The notes below the pieces were generated by a model, which saw only the letters and a program-made list of their open reading frames with translations, did no database searches and was not told where the DNA came from. Source: Lasiodiplodia sp. COLG20 (lineage: Eukaryota; Ascomycota; Dothideomycetes; Botryosphaeriales; Botryosphaeriaceae). Taken from it: a stretch of 64,000 nt of DNA. The position numbers and the translations under genes were made by a program. Location: the NCBI GenBank assembly GCA_009801085.1, contig VNWV01000007.1, positions 1,984,001 through 2,048,000 on the forward strand. The letters are read 5' to 3'. How positions within the stretch are numbered: the stretch's first letter is position 1; each line of letters opens with the position of its first letter. Positions 13,344-62,921 of this stretch are shown piece by piece.

Positions 13344-15103
13344 ATGAAGTTCCTCGTTACGCCTAATTTGCTCGCTCTGAGCCTTCTTACGGCTCCTGGA
13401 AACGCCCTTCCACATGGTAACGCCGTCGAGAGGCGCTTCGTGGTACGTTTGCTTCGTTATAGGAGCTTTATTCTAGTCTCTAATATCCAATACAGGATAC
13501 TGCGAACAAGGCCGTTCCGTCCCTCGTCGCAAGAGAGCCTCTCGTACGTCGTCAGAATACAACCTCGAACGCGTTCCAGGGTTTCCCTCGGGCTGCTTCC
13601 GTGGCTAGATCTCCCCAAGATGCCACCGACAGCAGTGCCAACGATTTCCAGAATGTTACTCCCGAAGAAGGCCTCGAGGCGAACCGACAAGCCCTCCATG
13701 TCCGCTACCCGGGCGGTGCCGCTGGAGCCAACGCCGCTGGAGCTGATGCCGCTGCCGCCGACTCTGCCGCCGATCCTGCCGCCGACTCTGCTGCCACCGC
13801 CGCCGGTGCCGACTCCGCAGCCAACCCTGCCGCTGCTGACCCTGCCGCTGCCAACGCCGCTGCCGCAACCCCAGCAGCAGACGCCGCAGCCGCCGCCGCT
13901 ACTCCCGCCGCCGCTGCCGTCGCCACTCCTGCTGCCGCTGCCGCTGCAGAGACTCCGGCTGCTGCTGATGCAGGAGCAGGTGCTGACAGCCAGGCTGGTG
14001 CTGACAGCGGCAACGGCGGAGGCCTTCTAAGTGGCTTGCTCGGTAAGCTCACTGGTGGTGATGCCGCCGGCGGTGATGCCGCAGCTGGTGGTGATGCCGC
14101 AGCCGCTGGTGGCGATGCGGCTGGAGGCGACAGTGGCGGCCTCCTTAGTGGTCTTCTGGGAGGACTGACTGGCGGCGGCGGTGGTGGTAATGGTGGTGGC
14201 CTTCTGTCTGGCCTCGGACTCAAGGAGCGCTCTCCTTCGCCACAAGACGGAGGTAACAACGGTGGCCTCCTCGGCGGCGTTGGTAGCCTTGTGGGAGATG
14301 TGACGGGAGACCTCGGACTGAAGCAGCGCTCTCCTTCGCCACAAGACGACGGCAATAATGGCGGGCTTCTCGGTGGCGTTGGCGATCTCGTCGGAGGACT
14401 AACCGGCGGAAATGGTGGTGGTAACGGCGGTGGTGGTCTCCTGTCTGGTCTTGGGCTGAAGGAGCGCTCTCCTTCGCCGCAAGACGGAGGTAACAGTGGT
14501 GGCCTTCTCGGTAACGTTGGCAACCTCGTAGGGGATGTGACAAGCGACATCGGACTGAAAGAACGCTCTCCTTCGCCCCAAGGTGGTAACAACGGTGGAC
14601 TTCTTGGCGGTGTTGGCAACCTCGTGGGAGATGTGACGGGCGACATTGGTCTGAAGCAACGTTCTCAAGGCGCTGATGCCGGCAATGCCAACGCCGCAAA
14701 CGCCAACAACAACGCCGCCAATGGTTTCCCGAAGGTCAACGTAAACGCCGCCGGCCAGAACGCCAGCCTTAACGCAGCCAGCAACAACAACTTTGGCAGG
14801 GCGGCAGCACCTCGTGGTGCCAATGTTGCCGCTGCAAACAACGGCAACTCCACCGCGAACACGAACGAGAACAAGGCGCGGGCCCCGACTCCGAATTCGA
14901 TGTGCACCCGATCTCTGAAGCTTTTCGAACGCGACCCTAGTAGGGATCACATTGCCGCTGCTGCCATCAACTGCGCTCGGTCAGTGCCGGCCTCCTCCTC
15001 GGAGAGCATCGTTGACGTCCTGAAGAGGGATGTTATGAGCCTGAACAAGAGGGAGGCGGAGCTTACGACGGGTACAGCTGCACCTGCCGACAATTCAGCC
15101 TAG
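13344..15103 (+). CDS. Secreted Ala/Gly-rich tandem-repeat protein
   Basis: Exon 1 (13344-13442) encodes a signal peptide; after a 53-bp intron, exon 2 (13496-15103) completes 568 aa. Cleavage is likely after APGNA near residue 21. Dibasic RR pairs follow in VERRF and VRRQN. Residues about 110-215 are almost pure Ala with Asp, Pro and Ser. Next comes a Gly/Leu-rich zone with repeats of about 34 aa, built from GLK[E/Q]RSPSPQ followed by a GGLLGGVGNLVGD-like segment: four full copies and a fifth junction. An Asn/Ala-rich segment follows, then a C-terminal part with two Cys, DVLKRDVMS and NKREAEL. KREAEL looks like a kexin plus dipeptidyl-peptidase processing site. No enzyme domain is present. 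It could be a cell-wall or surface protein or a processed precursor; the UstYa-like neighbour makes the second idea worth testing. Confidence 0.85.
14210..14670 (+). repeat. Coding tandem repeat, K[EQ]R-SPSPQ units
   Basis: The word GCTCTCCTTCGCC recurs at about 14229, 14329, 14465 and 14565, each starting a unit encoding K[E/Q]RSPSPQ and then a Gly/Leu/Val-rich segment. A fifth K-Q-R occurs near 14655 without SPSPQ. Spacing is about 100, 136 and 100 bp; the long unit carries an extra Gly-rich insertion. Confidence 0.85.
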
Positions 15104-16196: not shown

Positions 16197-18828
16197 ATGG
16201 CTTTCCACGCTCCGGTCAGCCTGCAGGTGCGCTCAAGATCTCCCGCCCCAGCCCTACTCTTGAGAAATCCTAACTTAACACGTCATAAAGAGTGTCGCCT
16301 CTGCTGCCACCGAGGCCTGGCCGTCAATGTTTGCTGCTGCGCAGACTCCCTGGCGACTCTTGGGACGTCGCGCGTCGCCTTCGGAACCCGCACGAGACCG
16401 CCGGCCACTGCTCGATGGACCCAAGTCAAACGTATATCATGGAACGCTTTCGGAACCTTCGGTTGCTGATGGAAGACAGGCTGTCGTGCCTGAGTGCTTG
16501 GCCTCCGTCCCGCTCTCCGCCCTCCGCTTTCGCCCGTCGCCCGAAGCGCTCGGTGCCCCGCAAACAGTAGCTGGCATGTTTGCTCAAGGCAAGTGGTTTG
16601 GATGGCATTCGCTGCGCGCGCAATACCACTGGCAGCTTGCTAACAGTCTCACAGTGCCGGTTCATACCCTCCGGCGCTTCAGTCCTCTGTCTCGCACTTT
16701 CCCTTCGGTTTCGAACACTTCTCGGCAATACTCCACTCTTACCCGGCTCGCTCCCTTCAAACTCAACCCCATCCCGAGACCCGGAAACGTTGGTTTGACC
16801 CAGCAGCGCAGTATCTTCGGCGGCAATACTTCACGGAATCTTTTGGCTCACATGGAACAAACGGCAAACAACAATCCTGGGAGTGCTAGCGCTCAGAATG
16901 CCTTCTATGCTGCGCTTCTCCGCGCTAACCTTCCCCAAATCGTCGTTGAACGCTATGAATCAGGCAGATTTGCTACAAACGCGGCATGCGATGCGCTGTA
17001 TACTCGGGCTTTAGAGAGGCTTGGTCAGTCGGATAAGGCAGCTAGCCTTCAAGGCAACAATGGCACTGCCGGGCAAGCCTCTAGTCTTGGAATGGACCAG
17101 ATTTCGGCTATTGGTCAAGCAGTCGGTGCACGCGTCCGTGGCGGCAACATCGCGACTGCCCGTACCGGTTCTGGCGAGAGGGCTAGTCCGTTATACGTCG
17201 TCGTCGAAGAATCCACCGGCAGCACTATCTTCAAATGGGTCAAGTTCTTCTTGTGGTTTGGTCTTCTGACCTACCTTTCCATGGTTTGCGTAACCATGGT
17301 TATCGAAGCTAGCGGCATGCTGCAAAGGCGTGGTGCCAAGCAGGACATGGAAGCGAAGCCGGAACTCCAGACTACCCGATTTAGTGATGTCCATGGCTGC
17401 GAAGAGGCCAAGGAAGAACTCCAGGAGCTCGTCGATTTCCTCAAGGCCCCGGATAAATTCAACGCCCTTGGTGGTAAGCTTCCCAAGGGCGTTCTCCTTG
17501 TTGGCCCCCCCGGTACCGGTAAGACTTTGTTGGCTCGCGCAGTTGCCGGAGAGGCTGGCGTTCCGTTTTTCTACATGTCAGGCTCGGAATTTGACGAGGT
17601 GTACGTCGGTGTCGGTGCCAAGCGTGTTCGAGAGCTCTTCGACGCGGCCAAATCTAAAGCGCCTGCCATCGTCTTCGTCGACGAACTCGATGCCATTGGT
17701 GGTAAACGCAACGACCGCGACCACGCGTACGTCAAGCAAACTCTCAATCAACTCCTCACGGAATTGGACGGTTTTGAGCAGAATTCTGGCGTGATCTTCA
17801 TTGCTGCCACAAACTTCCCGGAACTTCTCGACAAGGCCCTTACCCGCCCTGGGCGGTTTGATCGCAACGTCGTTGTCCCTCTTCCTGATGTTCGTGGCCG
17901 TTCTGCCATCCTCAAGCACCACATGAGGAATGTTCAGATTGGCACGGATGTCGATGCCGATGTCATTGCTCGTGGTACTCCCGGATTCAGCGGCGCCGAA
18001 CTTGAGAACATTGTGAATCAGGCTGCAGTACATGCATCCAAGAACAAGCAAAAGCGTGTTTCCATGATTGATTTCGAATGGGCAAAAGACAAGGTTCTTC
18101 TCGGCGCCGAGCGCCGCTCGGCGGTGATTCAACAGAAGGATAAGATTGCGACGGCTTACCACGAGGGCGGTCACGCGCTCGTTGCCATGTTCACAAAGCA
18201 CGCGGATCCCCTCTACAAGGCCACCATCATGCCTCGTGGCCACGCTCTCGGCATCACCTTCCAGTTGCCTGAGATGGACAGGGTCAGCCAGACAAAACTG
18301 GAGTATCTTGCTCATATTGATGTGTGCATGGGCGGCAAAGTTGCAGAGGAACTCATCTACGGGCCCGACCACGTCACTTCTGGCGCTTCCAGCGACATCC
18401 AGAAGGCCACTGCCATAGCCTACTCGATGGTCACTCAGATGGGCATGAGCGATGAGCTGGGCAATATTGACCTCTACAGCAACTTCTCTCGGCTGTCTTC
18501 GGAAACGAAGAACAAGATTGAGGATGAAGTGCGCAAGATTCTGGACGCGTCGAGAGAGCGTGCCAAGAAGCTCTTGACAGAGAAGCGTGAGGAGCTCGAC
18601 CGTCTTGCCGGAGCGCTGGTCGAGTTCGAGAGTCTGACGAAGGAGGAGATGGAGAAGGCGGTGAGGGGCGAGAAGATTGGAGACAAACTCAAGGGTGAGT
18701 TCCAGTTGCCAATCAAGCTTCCAGAGAGCTTCATGCCACCGGCATTACCAGGGAGCGGCGAGCAGCCAGGCAGTTCGCCAGCTCCGGGCTCGGGCATTCC
18801 CGGAGCCAACGGCATGAACGAGAGGTGA
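16197..18828 (+). CDS. YME1: Mitochondrial i-AAA protease (FtsH family)
   Basis: Exon 1 (16197-16226) and exon 2 (16291-18828) flank a 64-bp intron with a CTAAC-like branch point and give 855 aa. The N-terminus is basic, Ser-rich and acid-poor, as in mitochondrial presequences. One membrane segment lies near residues 320-345. The AAA domain has Walker A GPPGTGKT at about 415-422, Walker [12 protein letters not shown], and an SRH with the arginine finger in RPGRFDR. The zinc protease motif HEGGH is near 634. A single TM segment and sequence type indicate i-AAA (Yme1/Iap-1), which faces the intermembrane space of the inner mitochondrial membrane and degrades unassembled proteins. A further 66-bp GC-AG intron at 16589-16654 would keep the frame and remove 22 residues from the presequence region, giving 833 aa. 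Confidence 0.93.
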
Positions 18829-45540: not shown

Positions 45541-47842
45541 TTAGTTCCAGGCCTGCATGTTCTTAACCTCGCAGCCCTCTTGGCCCTCAGTCCTCTTCAC
45601 CAGCTCACCAACCACGTAGACCTTCTCACCAGCCGCCTCAAGCGCCTTGGTCGCCTCGGCCACCTTGCTCTTCTCAACAACGCACACCATGCCGAGACCA
45701 GTGTTGAACGCACGCGAGAACTCCCTGTCCTCGACACCGCCAGCCTGCTTGAGCCAGCGGAAGACGGGCGGCACAGGGTAGGTTGCGGCATCAACAACGG
45801 CTTGGAGGTGGTTAGGCAGCATGCGCGGGATGTTCTCGAGCAGACCACCACCAGTGATGTGTGCCATACCCTTGAGGAGGCGCTGCTGCGCCGCGGCAAG
45901 AAGCGGGCGGACGTAGATGCGAGTGGGCGTGAGGAGAGCAACGCCAACAGACTCGCCGGACTGGCTCCAGGGCGCGGGCGAGTGAAAAGAGAGGCCGGCA
46001 CGCTCGACGATCTTGCGGATGAGGGAGAAGCCGTTAGAGTGCGGGCCGCTGGAGGCGAGACCGATGAGGACGTCGCCCTCGACCATGGAGGCCGTGTCAG
46101 GGAGGATGGGCTGGTTGCGAGCGAGGGCACCAATGGCGGCACCACCAGCGTCATACTCGCCAGCAGAGTACAGACCAGGCATCTCGGCCGTCTCACCGCC
46201 AACGAGAGTGCAGTTAGACTGCTTGCAACCTTCAGCAACACCATGGACGAAGGCGGCAGCGGCGTCAACATCCAGCTTGCTACACGCATAGTAGTCGAGG
46301 AACATGAGCGGCTCAGCACCCTGAACCACAAGGTCATTGACGTTCATGGCGACGAGATCGATACCAACGGTATCATGCTTGCCCATTTCGAATGCAATCT
46401 TGACCTTGGTGCCAATGCCGTCAATGGCACCGACAAGGATGGGTGCCTCCTTGTAGCCGGCAGCAGCAAGGTCGAAAGTGCCGCCAAATCCACCAATCTC
46501 GGCGTCAGCACCAGCTCTACGTGTTGACTTGACTGAGGCCTTGATACGCTGGACAAGCTCGTTGCCGGCATCAATGCTTACACCAGCAGAAGCATAGGTC
46601 ATGGCCTCTTGCTGGGCAGGCGTTTCCCGGGTGACAGTGGTACCATCCTCAGCGGGCTCAAGGAGTTTCCAGATGCAAGTGATGTTCTCCTTCTTGAATT
46701 CGTTGATGAGGTGGTTGGCAATGCCGTCAAAGTTGTGGGTGGCTAGTGCAAGGATGGTAGGGCCAGCACCAGACAAGCAGATACCAAGCAGACCGGGATG
46801 CGACTTGGGGGTGACAGATTGAAGGATTTCAGTGAGACCGGGAATAAGAGTCTTGCGGTAGGGCTGGTGGATCTTGTCCTGCATACCCTCGTAGATCATG
46901 TCAGGGTCTGGGGGGGATTCACCAAGGGCGGTGGTCAGGAGGGCTATTCTCTGCAGGTTGAAGACCAGGTCGGCGCGGCTGTACTGGGCCGGCAGAACAC
47001 CTCTCGCCTTGGCTGTCGAGACCTCGAACTGAGGAATGATGGCAATGCACTTGATCTCCTTAGCCCACTTGAATTTCTTGTAGTGACCAATGTTGTGCGG
47101 CGGCTCCGGGGGCTGGAGGCCGGTGTCGATACCACCAGCAGGCTCAGGCAGGACCTCGGCCAGCGGAATCTCCTTACGGGCCATATCGGCGGGGTCGAGT
47201 TCGTTCAGGTAGGTACCGACGAAACCACCGTACAGAGCGGCAGCGACGTTGTCAGGGTGTCTTTCGATCATGAGACAGTAGTCGAGCATTCTGGCCTTGG
47301 ACAGTCCCAGGTTTCCGACCTCATTTCCGAGACTCACACCAGCAACCTAGACATGTATCAGCCGGTACAATGCATGTTGATATCTTGCCGCCGCCAATGG
47401 CCAGCCGAAACCCAGCGGGTGCAGCGGTGATCATACGATATAGCCGCCTCTCTCGCGCCCGCCAGGTCCAGGCTAGCCACAGCTCGCAGCAAGGTCGCAC
47501 AGTTCAGGCGAGTCCTACCACTGCGGCACCGCTGCTTCCCAAGCCTCTTCCCAAGGGAATTGGGTTCTTGATGTGTACGTGGGTGCCGGGGAACTTTCGC
47601 TGGCCATGGCACTTGAGGACGTAGAGGGCGACGCGGGTGACGAGGTTGACGTCGGGGTCGAGATCTATTTCGTCCGCGCCCTCACCTTCGTATGTGATGC
47701 GGCAGGCGAGCGAATTGAGCTGCTCAGCGGAGGGGTCGGGCTTGACGTGCAACTCGAGGTAGACGGAGAGGGCGAGGCCGATGACGTCGAAACCGGGGCC
47801 AATGTTGGCGGACGAGCAGGGGACCTTGATAACGCACGCCAT
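45541..47842 (-). CDS. THR1-ADE7: Fusion: homoserine kinase + phosphoribosylformylglycinamidine cyclo-ligase (AIRS)
   Basis: Two exons, 47842-47519 and 47346-45541, flank a 172-bp intron and give 709 aa in one frame. Residues 1 to about 350 are a complete GHMP-type homoserine kinase: [14 protein letters not shown] near the N-terminus, the ATP loop [12 protein letters not shown] at about 95-106, and the C-terminal motif [11 protein letters not shown] near 298. It phosphorylates homoserine for threonine synthesis. With only a short linker, an AIR synthetase (PurM/AIRS) follows from Met357: [37 protein letters not shown] and [12 protein letters not shown] are all present. AIRS is step 5 of purine synthesis and in fungi is normally the C-terminal half of ADE5,7. 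No stop or splice site separates the two enzymes. The reading frame is certain; that the cell makes one bifunctional protein is inference. Confidence 0.9.
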
Positions 47843-48080
47843 GGCTGCGAATGGCTCGCTGGGTACCGCTTCCTCGGACTGAGGGGTCGTCTTTTGTGTA
47901 GTTTGTGGGCGAGGGGCGCGGTGGTTCGAGTTGGAGTCACTGTCGAGCGGCGGCCGCTCAGCCCTACGGAAAAGTTCCCAGAGCCTGCCCCGCAATCGGC
48001 CCTGCTCCACCAAAATTTCAAGTCGGCCGCCGCGGGGCACTCGCAGAACCAAGCATCAACACGAACCCCCAGACTCCACA
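47843..48080. promoter_or_regulatory. Bidirectional promoter, homoserine kinase-AIRS / GARS
   Basis: Only 238 bp separate the two divergent start codons, so both genes probably share control elements. One TGACTC lies on the minus strand at 47939-47934. TGACTC is the core bound by Gcn4/CpcA and by yeast Bas1, which control amino-acid and purine genes. A single 6-bp match is weak evidence by itself. Confidence 0.55.
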
Positions 48081-49472
48081 ATGGCTGACGTCCGTGTCCT
48101 TCTCGTTGGAAATGGCGGCAGAGAGCACGCCCTCGCCTGGAAGCTCTCTCAATCGCCCCGCATCGACCGCATCTTCGTCGCTCCCGGCAATGGCGGCACC
48201 GCCCTCCTCACCAAGGCGCAGAACGTCGAGTCCGTCAAGGCTGACGACTACCCGGGTCTCGTCAAGTTCGCTGTCGAGAACAACGTGAACCTTCTCATTC
48301 CCGGCCCCGAAGCCCCGCTTGTCGACGGCATTGTTGATGTTTTCAACAAGAATGCTCCCCAAATCAAGTGCTTCGGCCCCTCCGGTGCTGCTGCCCGCAT
48401 GGAGGGCAGCAAGACCTTCTCCAAGGACTTCATGGACCGCCACAACATTCCCACCGCCGCGTACAAGAACTTTACTTCCCACGATGAGGCTCGCGCCTAC
48501 CTCGACAGCGTCTCGCACCCTGTCGTTATCAAGGCTTCCGGTCTCGCTGCCGGCAAGGGCGTCATCATTCCCACCACCAAGGAGGAGGCACACCGCGCCC
48601 TGAGGGATATTATGCTGGACCGCGAGTTTGGTTCTGCTGGTGATGAGGTTGTCATTGAGGAGTTCCTCGAGGGTGACGAGCTCAGCATCCTGACCTTTAG
48701 TGACGGCACCTCTATCCAGAGCCTGCCTCCGGCTCAGGATCACAAGCGTATCTTCGACGGCGACAAGGGCCCCAACACTGGCGGCATGGGTACCTACTCT
48801 CCTACGCGCATCGCACCCAAGGACGTCGTGGACAAGATCAACAAGGAGGTGCTGCAGCCCACTGTCGACGGCATGAAGGCTGAGGGTATGTCATGTCTTG
48901 ACATGCTTGGAACTGCGAGCGGCTAACAATTACCGTCTCAGGCTACCCCATGATTGGCTGCCTGTTCACTGGTCTTATGATGACCAAGAACGGCCCCAAG
49001 GTGCTCGAGTACAATGTTCGCTTCGGTGACCCAGAGACCCAGTCGCTGTTGCCGTTGATGGACAGCGACCTTGCTGAGCTCGTGCTTGCCTGCACTGACA
49101 GCAAGCTTGCCAACTTTGATCTGAAGGTGGGAGAGAAGAGTGCCGCTACCGTGGTGGTGGCTGCCGGTGGCTACCCCGGCTCGTATGCAAAGGGCACCGA
49201 GATGAAGCTCGACCCTGTTCCGAATGGTGGGTGACTTTATGCGGATGGAATCCGCCATAAGCTAACTTATTGTAGATACCGTTCACTTCCACGCTGGCAC
49301 CGCGTTGAAGGATGGCGTGCTGCGCACTTCTGGCGGTCGTGTCATTGCATCAACGGCATGGGCACCCACGCTTGAGGAGGCCGTTCAGAAGGCCTACAAG
49401 GGAGTTGAGGCCATCCACTTTGAAGGCATGCAGTACCGCAAGGACATTGCAGGCCGCGCGCTGAAAAAGTAA
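48081..49472 (+). CDS. ADE5: Stand-alone phosphoribosylamine-glycine ligase (GARS)
   Basis: Three exons, 48081-48885, 48942-49226 and 49276-49472, join in frame to 428 aa; introns are 56 and 49 bp with GT...AG ends. The protein has the PurD N-terminal VLLVGNGGREHALAW, the ATP-grasp lid HPVVIKASGLAAGKGVII, GPNTGGMGTYSP, and the metal/ATP segment LEYNVRFGDPETQ. It makes glycinamide ribonucleotide, step 2 of purine synthesis. It stops right after YRKDIAGRALKK, where the fungal ADE5,7 protein would continue into AIRS. The AIRS domain is instead fused to homoserine kinase on the other strand, across a shared 238-bp promoter. As a monofunctional enzyme it has bacterial PurD length and should be active. 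The missing AIRS half is the oddity. Confidence 0.93.
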
Positions 49473-58413: not shown

Positions 58414-61400
58414 ATGGCTACAAACACAGCTATCACGTATAGACTTCAGGGCATACCCAGGGCTTACAACAGGCATGACACCCAAGACCTGGCATGTCGC
58501 CTATTGGGCGTCGGCAAAAGCAAAGTCTCCGTACGATCGCTTGCTTTGCATCCGTTGAAATGCGACTCAAAGATTGCTACACTCTCTCTTCTGGAAACAC
58601 CCGCACCCGTTGCTCCGAAGCAGAAGACCAGCGTGTGGTCCTTTAGAGAACCGGATCAGATCATTACAGGAAAGTTTCTTGATTTCACTCTTGACACTCA
58701 CTTCCACGGTTTTACCCCGTTGCATGATGGGGAGGATGAGCAATGCAACATCGAGTAAGTGTACCCGAGCCCCCACAAGATGTTTGGGCAAATGACTGAG
58801 TTCTTTCTGACGTTTAGCTTGATCGCTCTTTCTGGTCTAAATGGGCATGCCTTTGGATCATTCAAAGCTAAAGGGCTGGATTTTATGTGGATTCGAGATG
58901 CCCTAGCTGCAGAATTTCCGGGCTGTAGATTGTTCATCTACGGGTACGATACGAAAATGGTCCACAGCACCTCACATCAGTCCATTCTAGACCTTGGGTC
59001 ACAGTTAGCGTCCAGCGTTGAAGGTCTCATTTCGGCTACACCTACAGGTTCTCAATCCGGTAGATCTTTAATATTCCTTGGTCATAGCCTTGGTGGACTT
59101 GTTGTTGAGCAGGTGAGAACTCATATTTGTCCTAGTTCTAAAGCGGGAGCGCCCTCTTAGTGGCAAATCTGCTGATCGTGCCTTCAGGCACTCGTCGAGC
59201 TGTATTCTCATGGCGCAATTCACTCGAGACATGAGTCTATTCTTCAAAAAATCACGGGCGTACTTCTTTTTGGTGTCCCTCAAAAGGGGATGTCGGTTGA
59301 GGCACTGATTACGATGGTCAACGAACAGCCGAACAGAGACCTCATTGCGAGTCTGGGTATTGATTCTGCTTTTCTGCAGCTTCAGCAATCAAACTTTCAG
59401 AAAGCCCGCTTGGGAATGAGAAATGCCTCTGTGGTCGCATTTTTCGAAACTCAAGAGACGCCAACTGTACAGAAAAATGTAAGTCTGAGCTTTGGGCTGA
59501 CACATGAGTCAATTTCTGATAGTCCTGGTAGGCGTTAGGAAAATGGGAGATGTCGGGTCCACCAAAACTTCTCGTTTCGAAAACATCAGCAACTTCGATA
59601 AGCGATACCTCCATTGCCGTAAATCGCAACCACTCTGAAATTGTTAAATTTCAACCAAATGACGCAGATTACGATCGTGTGCTCTCAACACTCCGGCTCA
59701 TGAGGAGAAGAAATGGACAGCTCTACACCGAAGCAACCCTGCCAACCGACAAAGAAACTGAGGCCCTTCAATCACTGGGCTTTCCGGAGCAACACTGGCG
59801 CCGAGATGAAATTAGCCCTGGCGAGGATACATGCGAGTGGCTTTCCGAAAACCCGACCTTTCAAGAATGGTTCCGCAATCCAGATAACCCCGAACTGCGG
59901 AGATTATGGATTCGGGGACACCCTGGATCGGGGAAGTCAACGCTGATGAAGTACGCCTGGGAATTCCTTACCCACCGTCTCCCCGCCAACGTGACACTTG
60001 CGTCTTTCTTTTTCCATGGTCGTGGGACCTCTTTACAGCAGAATCGTATGGGATTACTGCGTTCTATCCTCCACCAAATAGCGTTTCATCTGCCAGAAGC
60101 CCGTTCCTACCTTATGCGGCGCTACGCCGAAAAACGCACAGCCACCCCGAAGGTACAATGGTCAGAAGGCGAATTACAGCAGCTAGTTCGGGAGGTCTTA
60201 GCTGCCTGCACAAAGCCAGTATGCATCTTGGTAGATGCACTTGATGAGGCTGGAAAGCAAACGGCAGAAGATTTGGTCAAGTGGTTTGGAAGATTGACAA
60301 ATTTGCCGGACGTCCGGGTTATTTTCTCATGTCGATACTACCCAGTCCTTCCAACTATCAGCAAGTTTGCCATATCTATGGAACACGAGAACGCGACCGA
60401 TATTGACCGGGTCGTGAGGGCTGAGCTTCGCAGCGAGCTCAACAAGGACGAAGCCCAGGCTCTGGAGAACATCATCATCCAAAAAGCCAACGGAATGTTT
60501 CAGTGGGCTACCCTAGTCACGAACTCAGTGGTGGAGACATACCGGGAGACGGGTCAGTCTGTTCAGATTCTTCTCAGGATGATCCAACAATTACCGCCAG
60601 ATTTGCACGCCTTGTATGACTCCCTTCTCAGTTCTATCAAAGCTTCAGAGAGGAATCAGACCATAAAGCTCTTTAACTGGATTCTGTTCGCCGACAGACC
60701 GCTTAATCCGTCTGAGCTCCAACATGCTCTCGTCATCGATGTGGAGATGACGGCTCGATCTGTATCCGAGTTCCCCACTAGCCCATTGTTCGTCGACGTG
60801 AAGCGGGCCATCAAAACACTCTCACGAGGCCTAGCGGAATTTAAAACTCACGTAGGCATTCAAACTGCACAATTCATCCATCAGTCTGTCGTGGACTACC
60901 TTAAAGCAGAAGGTCTCGCGAAGCTTGTCGAACTTCAGGGAGAAAACGCCGTTTTTGGTCACGCTCAACTCCAACTGTCTCGCTCATGTATCCGATATCT
61001 CCTGCTGAAGGATTTATCAAAAGCTGTAGAGGCTCTTGATAACTTCTTGTATCTTTCAGTAGAATACGACTTACACGAGGAATTTCCTTTAGCAGAATAC
61101 GCGCTTCACTTTTGGATCATTCACACTATTCACGCCGAGTCGTACGGAATTGATCAGCAAGATCTCCTAGACATTCTTCCATGGGCACGGATGGATAAAG
61201 TGCCTCCCACGTTTACAGTGGCCTGGGCTGACGCTGAGTATCACGGACACCAATTATTGAGACGCATCCACGAAACCAAAGCTATTGGAAATTTGCAACG
61301 AACATTTGACTGGGACCCCGTGCTATTTGATATTTCCGGCATATATGAGTGTATATGGAAATTACCTGAAAATCGTGATTCACTCGAACTGCCATTTGGT

Positions 61401-62921
61401 CTGTTTGCAATTGCCGGTATCAGCAGCGTATGGCGGCAATTACTGGCGGAGATCGAAGCGGACCACCACGCAATTACCGGCGACAACATTCGGGAGACGG
61501 GCTCCTCTCTACACAAACAAAGCTTTGATAAGGCAAGAAGCGGCAAACTAAGTTCACTCTTAGCCATTCTTCATGGAAATCCAGACGTCAAGCTCGAGGC
61601 AATTCCTGAAAGTCTGATCAAAGCTCAGGTCAATGACAGCTACCATGTTACGCCGCTTTTTCTGGCGGTTGCAATTCAGCGCGAGGATCTCGTTCGCGCA
61701 TTTATCAGTAACGGAGCTCGAGGGACTGATATTTGCGATGATGACAACGAATGGGATGAGCCAAGGTTTCTCTCAATCTTTGAGCTCGCGATCCTCATTG
61801 ATAACATAGATATCATGAGCCAGCTGATTGATGCATACGGTAAAGGCCCTGGACCTACCGTGAACGATATATCAGCACTACACTTTGCTATCAGACATGG
61901 CAGTGACGCCGTTTTTGACATGTTGATCGATCGGTGCTCAAGCCGATACACAGCGGAGGAGTTCATTGATTTCGGCGAGGATTCTCAGACTCCACTACAG
62001 ACTGCTATTTCATGCGGAGAGATGACGAGATGCCGAAAACTTGTTGATGCCGGGGCAGATATCGAAAAAGCTAATGGACGCCCTCTTCTTCTCTGGTACA
62101 TATATGTAGAGGATGCAGACCCAAAAATGCTGGAGGTGTTGTTAGAATGCGGAGCTGACCCTAACCGCGGACCCCCCCAATGGCCGACACCTCTTATGAG
62201 CGTTATGTCCTCCTATATATGGATCGATGCTATCGAAGTCCTACTCAAAGATAGACGGACAGACCCAAATCTCGCTGATAGAGAAGGGCTGACAGCACCA
62301 ATGCGGCTGCTACTTGATCGCCTTTGGGGAAAAAGCGATAAAATCGAGGTTATAAAGTTATGCACTTTGTCAGGGAGGTTCGACATGGAGATCAAAGATC
62401 CAATGGGTGAGGCCATCCTCACGAAAGCAGTCACTACTATGCAACCGGATATTGTCGACATCCTTCTCACTGATGGAAAAGCCGATCCCAACACTCGTAG
62501 CGCTTGCGGCTGGACGCCCTTGATGAGAGCGGCATTTCTGGGCTATTGGACCATCACAAAGCTTCTCCTATCTTGCACTAACATCGACATAGAAGCGCAA
62601 GACTCATGGGGAAAGACAGCCCTTTATTACGCCATAATAAAGGGAAACATGGATTGTGCAAACCTCATCCTGGGCCATGGAAAGACTGATCTCCAAAGTT
62701 TGAAGGCTCCGCTGGGTTCAGCTTGTTTTGAGGCTGCTGAGCAGGGAGAAAAAGAATTCTTGGCTCATTTACCGGACGTGCGACCCATGTGGTTTGGTCA
62801 CTACCTTATTTCTGAGATTTACAATCGAGCCCGACGAGGGAACCGGCGTTGCATGATCCGACAGCTGGAGGAGGCAGGCTTCCGTCCGCAAGAGGATATT
62901 GTCATGACAGATGCCTCTTGA
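58414..62921 (+). CDS. NLR-type STAND protein: alpha/beta hydrolase - NACHT - ankyrin repeats
   Basis: Four exons, 58414-58754, 58818-59112, 59188-59478 and 59532-62921, join in frame to 1438 aa. A short N-terminal domain opens with ITYRLQGIPR. Next is a lipase-like alpha/beta hydrolase (SesB/DUF676-like) from about residue 114 with LSGLNGHAFGSF and nucleophile Ser204 in GHSLGG. A linker SGPPKLLVSKTSATS leads to the NACHT-type NTPase: Walker A GHPGSGKS at 438-445 and Walker B CILVDALDEAG near 540-550. The C-terminal third carries ankyrin repeats (for example GWTPLMRAAFLGYWTITKLL). This is a classic fungal NLR layout; relatives act in non-self recognition and programmed cell death. The reading frame and all checked motifs are intact. 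Ligand and trigger are unknown. Three of the four exons encode only the N-terminal domains. Confidence 0.9.

What the first reader, a model, noticed from the sequence alone, without database searches (positions are those of the whole stretch)
45541..47842. Homoserine kinase fused in frame to AIR synthetase
One continuous frame encodes a complete homoserine kinase (through [11 protein letters not shown] and the C-terminal [10 protein letters not shown]) followed directly by a complete AIRS domain ([33 protein letters not shown]). In fungi and animals AIRS is normally joined to GARS. I know of no described enzyme joining threonine and purine synthesis this way. Both domains keep their motifs, so a working bifunctional protein is plausible. 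An alternative is internal initiation at Met357 just before AIRS.
Basis: partly seen in the sequence, partly recalled or inferred. Interest (0 to 1): 0.92.

Follow-up and report, generated by a model that had tools for sequence, protein, structure and literature searches.

The report
Threonine enzyme welded to purine enzyme
In this fungus the purine enzyme AIR synthetase is not joined to its usual partner but to homoserine kinase of threonine synthesis, and the same odd join is found in many related fungi, probably because a small piece of DNA spanning two neighbouring genes was once flipped.

Summary
On the minus strand, 47842-45541, one gene (one 172-nt intron in the kinase part) encodes 709 residues: full-length homoserine kinase (HSK, 4-348), eight linker residues, full-length AIR synthetase (AIRS, 357-692). 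No other HSK or stand-alone AIRS was found in the genome. The protein matches Lasiodiplodia hormozganensis at 708 of 709 residues. All 120 listed best hits (of 4226) carry the same fusion; the organism names shown are dothideomycetes (nine orders looked up, the rest by recall). So it is a conserved trait, not an artefact. Internal initiation at Met357 cannot be general: 69 of 120 fusions have no Met near the AIRS start. AIRS trees put the fused domains in one clade within fungal GARS-AIRS; HSK trees do not resolve one clade. In 8 of 12 species found in both lists, separate HSK and GARS-AIRS report contigs of identical length; in Diplocarpon coronariae their locus tags are consecutive. Most likely one ~2.8-kb inversion of a divergent HSK/GARS-AIRS pair moved AIRS onto HSK. 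Bifunctionality and inversion are inferred. My open-access literature searches found no description.

The parts
47519..47842 (-). Exon 1 of the fusion gene: start codon and N-terminal third of homoserine kinase (residues 1-108)
   Evidence: splice model; coordinates
47347..47518 (-). Single intron, 172 nt, GT..AG, inside the kinase part just after [11 protein letters not shown]
   Evidence: one donor and four acceptors tried; only this acceptor gives an open frame to the stop
46627..47842 (-). Homoserine kinase domain (residues 1-348, intron included in the span)
   Evidence: TIGR00191 residues 4-348; GHMP_kinases_N and _C
46603..46626 (-). Linker, residues 349-356 (ETPAQQEA); its end (EA, then Met357 and TYA) resembles the tail of GARS-AIRS linkers of other fungi (mostly EAL before TYA)
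45544..46602 (-). AIR synthetase domain (residues 357-709; profile match 357-692), followed by the stop codon at 45543-45541
   Evidence: TIGR00878; AIRS and AIRS_C
47843..48080 (.). 238-bp region between the two start codons, shared by the divergent fusion gene and GARS gene
47934..47939 (-). One TGACTC (recalled core of Gcn4/Bas1-type sites) in the shared region; weak evidence, the motif occurs 14 times in the window
48081..49472 (+). GARS gene, standing alone: 428 aa, introns 48886-48941 and 49227-49275, stop directly after GRALKK, no AIRS domain

Best explanation
The gene encodes one bifunctional protein in which homoserine kinase (threonine synthesis) carries AIR synthetase (purine synthesis) as its C-terminal half; each half works as its own enzyme. 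It most likely arose once, in an ancestor of the Dothideomycetes, when HSK and the usual fungal GARS-AIRS gene lay head to head around a common promoter region and the block HSK-promoter-GARS was inverted, with one breakpoint at the 3' end of HSK and the other in the GARS/AIRS linker. That single event took AIRS off GARS and put it in frame on HSK, leaving GARS alone and divergent. Shown: the architecture, one copy found of each of the three enzymes, wide conservation of the fusion, the fungal GARS-AIRS origin of the AIRS half, and HSK/GARS-AIRS linkage in several species of other classes. Inferred: enzyme activities, head-to-head ancestral orientation, and inversion as the mechanism.
For: One HSK, one GARS and one stand-alone-type AIRS found in the genome (the other two AIRS_C matches lie in one 1435-residue frame on contig C1, by recall the PurL-type enzyme). 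120 of 120 listed hits carry GHMP + AIRS + AIRS_C. Columns nearly invariant in GARS-AIRS and bacterial PurM: 74 of 78 kept in fused AIRS; in standalone HSK: 114 of 121 kept in fused HSK. Fused AIRS is one clade: 119 of 119 in the quick tree, support 0.985, with GARS-AIRS around it and bacteria outside; 26 of 26, support 99/94, in the careful tree. Linker arithmetic: about 6 residues of HSK tail plus 10 of GARS-AIRS linker (63 of 114 measured) gives 16; 70 of 108 measured fusions have 16 or 17, and 74 of 120 end EAL or EAM. Window GARS stops two residues past the point where the linker begins elsewhere.
Against: Orientation of HSK and GARS-AIRS in other classes was not seen. 4 of the 12 species (Sarea, Xylona, Peziza echinospora, Trichoglossum) do not share a contig length, and for five of the eight that do, the contig is over 1 Mb and no tags were seen, so close linkage is not shown there. 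No HSK tree unites the fused domains: FastTree does not; the careful tree needs 3 changes with 26 fused rows, AU p 0.038; without Aulographum (P0045) still 2 changes, but one clade is not rejected, p 0.43. In one search the chosen outgroup did not hold together and the fish row was very long, so the root there is unsure. The AlphaFold2 model is confident for HSK but poor over much of AIRS 387-505. No activity, transcript or protein data.
Confidence: 0.75

Rival explanations
1. The two enzymes are made from one gene but as separate proteins, by internal initiation at Met357 or by cleavage in the linker.
For: 49 of the 120 listed fusions, P0001 included, have Met at this position, as the window does; residues 349-354 of the linker are the most variable near the junction.
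Against: Position 357 is not Met in 71 of 120; 69 of 120 have no Met from 25 residues before to 3 after the AIRS start, and in 62 of those the first Met lies 71 residues inside AIRS. Cleavage is not excluded.
Confidence: 0.08
2. Same fusion protein, different origin: duplication of GARS-AIRS followed by complementary loss of domains, or a multi-step local rearrangement, rather than one inversion; or more than one origin.
For: Orientation in non-dothideomycetes was not seen; 4 of 12 species do not show HSK and GARS-AIRS on contigs of equal length; HSK trees do not unite the fused kinases.
Against: Needs more steps than one inversion, and the present head-to-head layout with GARS cut at the linker is what one inversion predicts; fused AIRS is one clade.
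Confidence: 0.22
3. The AIRS part was acquired from bacteria and joined to HSK, replacing the old AIRS.
For: Bacterial and archaeal AIRS match this half at 41-51% identity.
Against: Fused AIRS nests inside fungal GARS-AIRS with the 8 bacterial and archaeal rows outside.
Confidence: 0.01
4. Assembly or annotation artefact.
For: None found.
Against: Unbroken frame across the junction in the window and 120 of 120 listed homologues with the same architecture from several sources.
Confidence: 0.005

Closest known systems
Fungal GARS-AIRS bifunctional enzyme (yeast Ade5,7; ade1 of Pezizomycotina)
   Same: AIRS is the C-terminal half of a two-enzyme protein, joined by a short linker mostly ending EAL (fusions: EAL or EAM) before TYA; same AIRS lineage
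   Different: Here the N-terminal half is homoserine kinase and GARS is a separate, divergent gene
Animal trifunctional GART (GARS-AIRS-GART)
   Same: AIRS as one domain of a multienzyme protein (P0121, named trifunctional adenosine-3 of a stickleback)
   Different: All three domains of GART belong to purine synthesis (established knowledge); here the partner belongs to threonine synthesis
Standalone fungal homoserine kinase (yeast Thr1 type)
   Same: Full-length kinase, 71-79% identical to the 120 relatives listed
   Different: Carries a C-terminal AIRS where most standalone kinases shown end 5-7 residues after PA(E/D)xG
Bacterial PurM (1CLI and others)
   Same: Full-length match, conserved columns kept
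   Different: PurM is a free protein

Membership tests
Homoserine kinase (ThrB/Thr1, GHMP superfamily) | Full-length match above the curated cut-off of TIGR00191 | tested here: met
   353.4 bits against cut-off 168.25, profile 2-303 of 304
Homoserine kinase (ThrB/Thr1, GHMP superfamily) | Columns nearly invariant in standalone fungal kinases are kept | tested here: met
   114 of 121 columns kept at 95% or more in 120 fused proteins; the 7 others are N46, G105, V108, L114, F200, Y230, P253
Homoserine kinase (ThrB/Thr1, GHMP superfamily) | ATP-dependent phosphorylation of homoserine | not testable with these tools
   no assay
AIR synthetase (PurM/AIRS) | Full-length match above the curated cut-off of TIGR00878 | tested here: met
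   412.2 bits against cut-off 236.35, profile 1-331 of 332
AIR synthetase (PurM/AIRS) | Columns nearly invariant in GARS-AIRS and bacterial PurM are kept | tested here: met
   74 of 78 columns kept at 98% or more in 119 fused proteins; the 4 others are 423, 487, 506, 631; P0100 was left out because its GGETAEMPG motif reads GGETAEMSG
AIR synthetase (PurM/AIRS) | Predicted fold | tested here: inconclusive
   C-terminal half mostly confident; 387-406, 408-466 and 487-505 below pLDDT 50 in a model from a 67-row alignment; no fold search was run
AIR synthetase (PurM/AIRS) | ATP-dependent closure of FGAM to AIR | not testable with these tools
   no assay
GARS-AIRS (Ade5,7) bifunctional enzyme | GARS domain N-terminal to AIRS in one protein | tested here: not met
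   GARS is a separate gene on the other strand

The most novel reading that the evidence does not exclude
A single small inversion around a shared promoter swapped the 3' halves of two neighbouring metabolic genes, and the product was kept for the whole history of a fungal class because it is useful: homoserine kinase supplies threonine, a source of glycine (recalled threonine aldolase route), glycine is the substrate of GARS, and HSK, GARS and AIRS are now made from one divergent promoter, with HSK brought physically into purine-enzyme assemblies through AIRS.
Probability: 0.2. Interest if true: 0.8.

Novelty: new variant of a known kind. Interest (0 to 1): 0.62.

Why it matters
Enzyme fusions usually join steps of one pathway (general knowledge). 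This one joins two pathways, is the only copy found of either step in this genome, and is conserved across at least nine orders of a fungal class that includes many plant pathogens (recalled). It may be a clean shared derived character for Dothideomycetes, a rare case where the mutational origin of a fusion can be read from gene order, and it asks whether a fusion without an obvious functional reason can simply be locked in once both halves are essential.

Tried and rejected
Bacterial origin of AIRS was rejected by the tree. Assembly artefact was rejected by independent homologues. Internal initiation at Met357 was judged unlikely from Met conservation. Searching prokaryotic genome contigs for a fusion or for stray fungal contigs gave 37 loci, whose matches start at residue 334 or later, that is AIRS alone; viral contigs gave none. 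A first alignment mixing GARS-AIRS with fusions was dropped because GARS aligned to HSK meaninglessly; an alignment of 52 fusions and 15 standalone kinases was used for the model. FastTree of the kinases does not unite the fused ones and is poorly supported in places; careful trees of subsets were run instead and do not unite them either. TGACTC in the shared promoter region is no more than a lead.

Literature. Searches of the held open-access library: (homoserine kinase + AIR synthase: 1 paper, on maize; + cyclo-ligase: 9 papers, by title none on fungal fusions; + aminoimidazole + fused: 3; 3 of 4 terms: 4; three Parastagonospora locus tags: 0) were listed in full; searches matched 45, 94, 95 and 36 papers, of which 20, 15, 15 and 15 were listed. 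No listed title or abstract start describes the fusion. Only listings were seen, except passages of PMC9925542 (nothing on this fusion) and PMC6874960. Leonard and Richards 2012 on fungal gene fusions (recalled) is not held, so mention there or in other subscription papers cannot be excluded.

Not settled: presence in most Mycosphaerellales/Capnodiales, because only the best 120 hits are listed and one name (Oleoguttula) belongs there.

Full report
What is there. On the minus strand a gene runs from ATG at 47842 to a stop ending at 45541. One 172-nt GT..AG intron (47518-47347) lies in the kinase part; the spliced product has 709 residues. Pfam finds GHMP_kinases_N (66-149), GHMP_kinases_C (258-312), AIRS (412-515) and AIRS_C (531-696). 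NCBIfam finds full-length homoserine kinase at 4-348 and full-length AIR synthetase at 357-692, both well above their cut-offs (query P0001, which differs from the window's protein only at residue 666). So eight residues separate two complete enzymes.

238 bp from the fusion's start codon, on the plus strand, begins GARS (48081-49472, two introns, 428 aa, all three GARS domains, no AIRS). In the genome held (88 contigs) the searches found one HSK and one GARS, each as two exon matches, and AIRS_C only here and, twice, inside one 1435-residue frame on another contig, which by recall is the PurL-type enzyme. No GARS-AIRS gene was found; its two halves stand back to back, one of them on HSK.

How widespread. 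A search of 5.8 billion proteins gave 4226 hits; the 120 listed all have GHMP, AIRS and AIRS_C domains. The best is named Lasiodiplodia hormozganensis. Ten names were looked up; they fall in nine dothideomycete orders, Botryosphaeriales, Mycosphaerellales (one label), Dothideales, Myriangiales, Pleosporales, Venturiales, Aulographales, Gloniales and Microthyriales, plus Coniosporium of uncertain place. A query of window GARS joined to window AIRS listed 120 GARS-AIRS proteins, one of them a fish trifunctional enzyme and the other named ones, by recall, from Leotio-, Eurotio-, Xylono-, Pezizo-, Geoglosso- and Coniocybomycetes and relatives; I saw no dothideomycete name among them, and none of the 120 falls in the fused AIRS clade. 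A query of the kinase alone (candidates of 191-609 residues by the tool's length rule) listed 117 entries without an AIRS domain or fusion name and 3 short entries that carry AIRS pieces or are named as partial fusions (P0261, P0295, P0322).

Domains intact. Of 78 AIRS columns at 98% or more one residue in 120 GARS-AIRS plus 8 bacterial or archaeal PurM, 74 are kept at that level in 119 fused proteins (P0100 left out because its motif differs by one residue); of 121 HSK columns at 98% in 116 standalone kinases (4 of the 120 were dropped before this count: P0322 and three of 400 residues or more), 114 are kept at 95% in 120 fused ones. Fused AIRS shows no clear speeding-up (mean depth 1.145 against 1.105). 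Solved relatives by sequence are PurM/AIRS structures for one half and homoserine kinases for the other, with two weak thiamine-phosphate kinase matches. The AlphaFold2 model (67-row alignment) has mean pLDDT 77 and pTM 0.54; HSK and most of the C-terminal half of AIRS are confident, residues 387-406, 408-466 and 487-505 are not, which I put down to a narrow alignment and an obligate dimer (recalled), not to decay; that is a guess.

One protein or two. Position 357 is Leu in 70, Met in 49 and Phe in 1 of 120 fusions. 69 of 120 have no Met within 25 residues before to 3 after the AIRS start; in 62 of those the first Met is 71 residues inside AIRS, in the other 7 it is 40 or 45. Internal initiation therefore cannot make a full AIRS in those species. 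Cleavage is not excluded.

Origin. Fused AIRS domains form one clade in both AIRS trees: 119 of 119, 0.985, inside GARS-AIRS with 8 prokaryotic rows outside; 26 of 26, 99/94 (where the outgroup did not hold together and the fish row was very long, so the root is unsure). The HSK trees are weaker and partly against. FastTree does not unite the fused kinases. With 26 fused rows the careful tree needs three changes and one clade has AU p 0.038; without Aulographum hederae (P0045), whose kinase groups with Xylona, Pseudogymnoascus and one unnamed row at 99/94, two changes are needed and one clade is not rejected, p 0.43. I dropped that row after seeing the first result.

Where HSK and GARS-AIRS lie elsewhere. 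The protein listings give the longest contig of each entry. Comparing all 120 GARS-AIRS with all 120 kinase entries, eight pairs have exactly the same length, and by the names each is a pair from one species (Chaenotheca gracillima, Xylogone, Phlyctema vagabunda, Venustampulla, Glutinoglossum americanum, Diplocarpon coronariae, Tricladium, Bisporella). Reading the names by eye I count 12 species in both lists, so 8 of 12; Sarea, Xylona, Peziza echinospora and Trichoglossum do not match. The contig is 27,399 bp in Glutinoglossum and 197,642 bp in Chaenotheca; in Diplocarpon coronariae the tags are PZA11_002542 and PZA11_002543. In the other five the contig exceeds 1 Mb, which shows the same contig but not closeness. 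So HSK and GARS-AIRS were probably neighbours before the fusion.

The inversion. If they stood head to head, inverting the block from the 3' end of HSK to the GARS/AIRS linker (46627-49472 today, about 2.8 kb) gives exactly today's order: lone GARS, shared promoter region, HSK-AIRS. The junction fits: most standalone kinases shown end 5-7 residues after PA(E/D)xG; GARS-AIRS linkers are most often 10 residues (63 of 114 measured) and end EAL in 64 of 114; fusions have 16 or 17 residues there in 70 of 108 measured (12 of 120 did not fit the pattern) and end EAL or EAM in 74 of 120; window GARS stops at GRALKK, about where the linker starts elsewhere. The orientation elsewhere could not be read with these tools.

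Function. Most likely both halves work in one ~75-kDa protein. Nothing seen here links the two steps directly. Two indirect links: threonine can be a glycine source for GARS (recalled), and a review lists yeast Thr1 in punctate foci and Ade5,7 in foci with other purine enzymes (PMC6874960, passages seen). A locked-in accident is at least as likely: once both essential halves sit in one frame, a new promoter and terminator would be needed to part them.

Known or new. Databases hold the proteins under names such as homoserine kinase, AIR synthase or ADE1. No description of the fusion was seen in the open-access searches (listings only, some capped, see Tried and rejected). Subscription papers were not searchable.

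Noticed in passing
P0045 (Aulographum hederae), residues 1-350: Its kinase half groups with Xylona, Pseudogymnoascus and one unnamed kinase (99/94) while its AIRS half sits with other fusions; possible replacement of one half or a tree artefact.
   Followed up: partly
listing, e.g. P0250, P0256, P0257, P0283: Many fungal homoserine kinases are named 'Trihydroxynaphthalene reductase' in public records, apparently a propagated misannotation.
   Followed up: no
P0100 (Tothia fuscella), AIRS domain: The otherwise conserved GGETAEMPG motif reads GGETAEMSG, and the row is among the longest fused AIRS branches.
   Followed up: no
window 47934-47939: One TGACTC in the 238-bp shared promoter region; the window as a whole has fewer such sites (14) than shuffles (mean 36).
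   Followed up: partly
window 59550-62921 (+): 1123-aa open frame that by eye looks like a NACHT/ankyrin-repeat protein of the fungal NLR kind.
   Followed up: no
window 13601-15103 (+): 500-aa open frame with a repeated LK.RSPSPQ..GGLLG unit and long Ala-rich stretches.
   Followed up: no
window 16327-18828 (+): 833-aa open frame that by eye is an AAA+ metalloprotease of the mitochondrial Yme1 kind.
   Followed up: no
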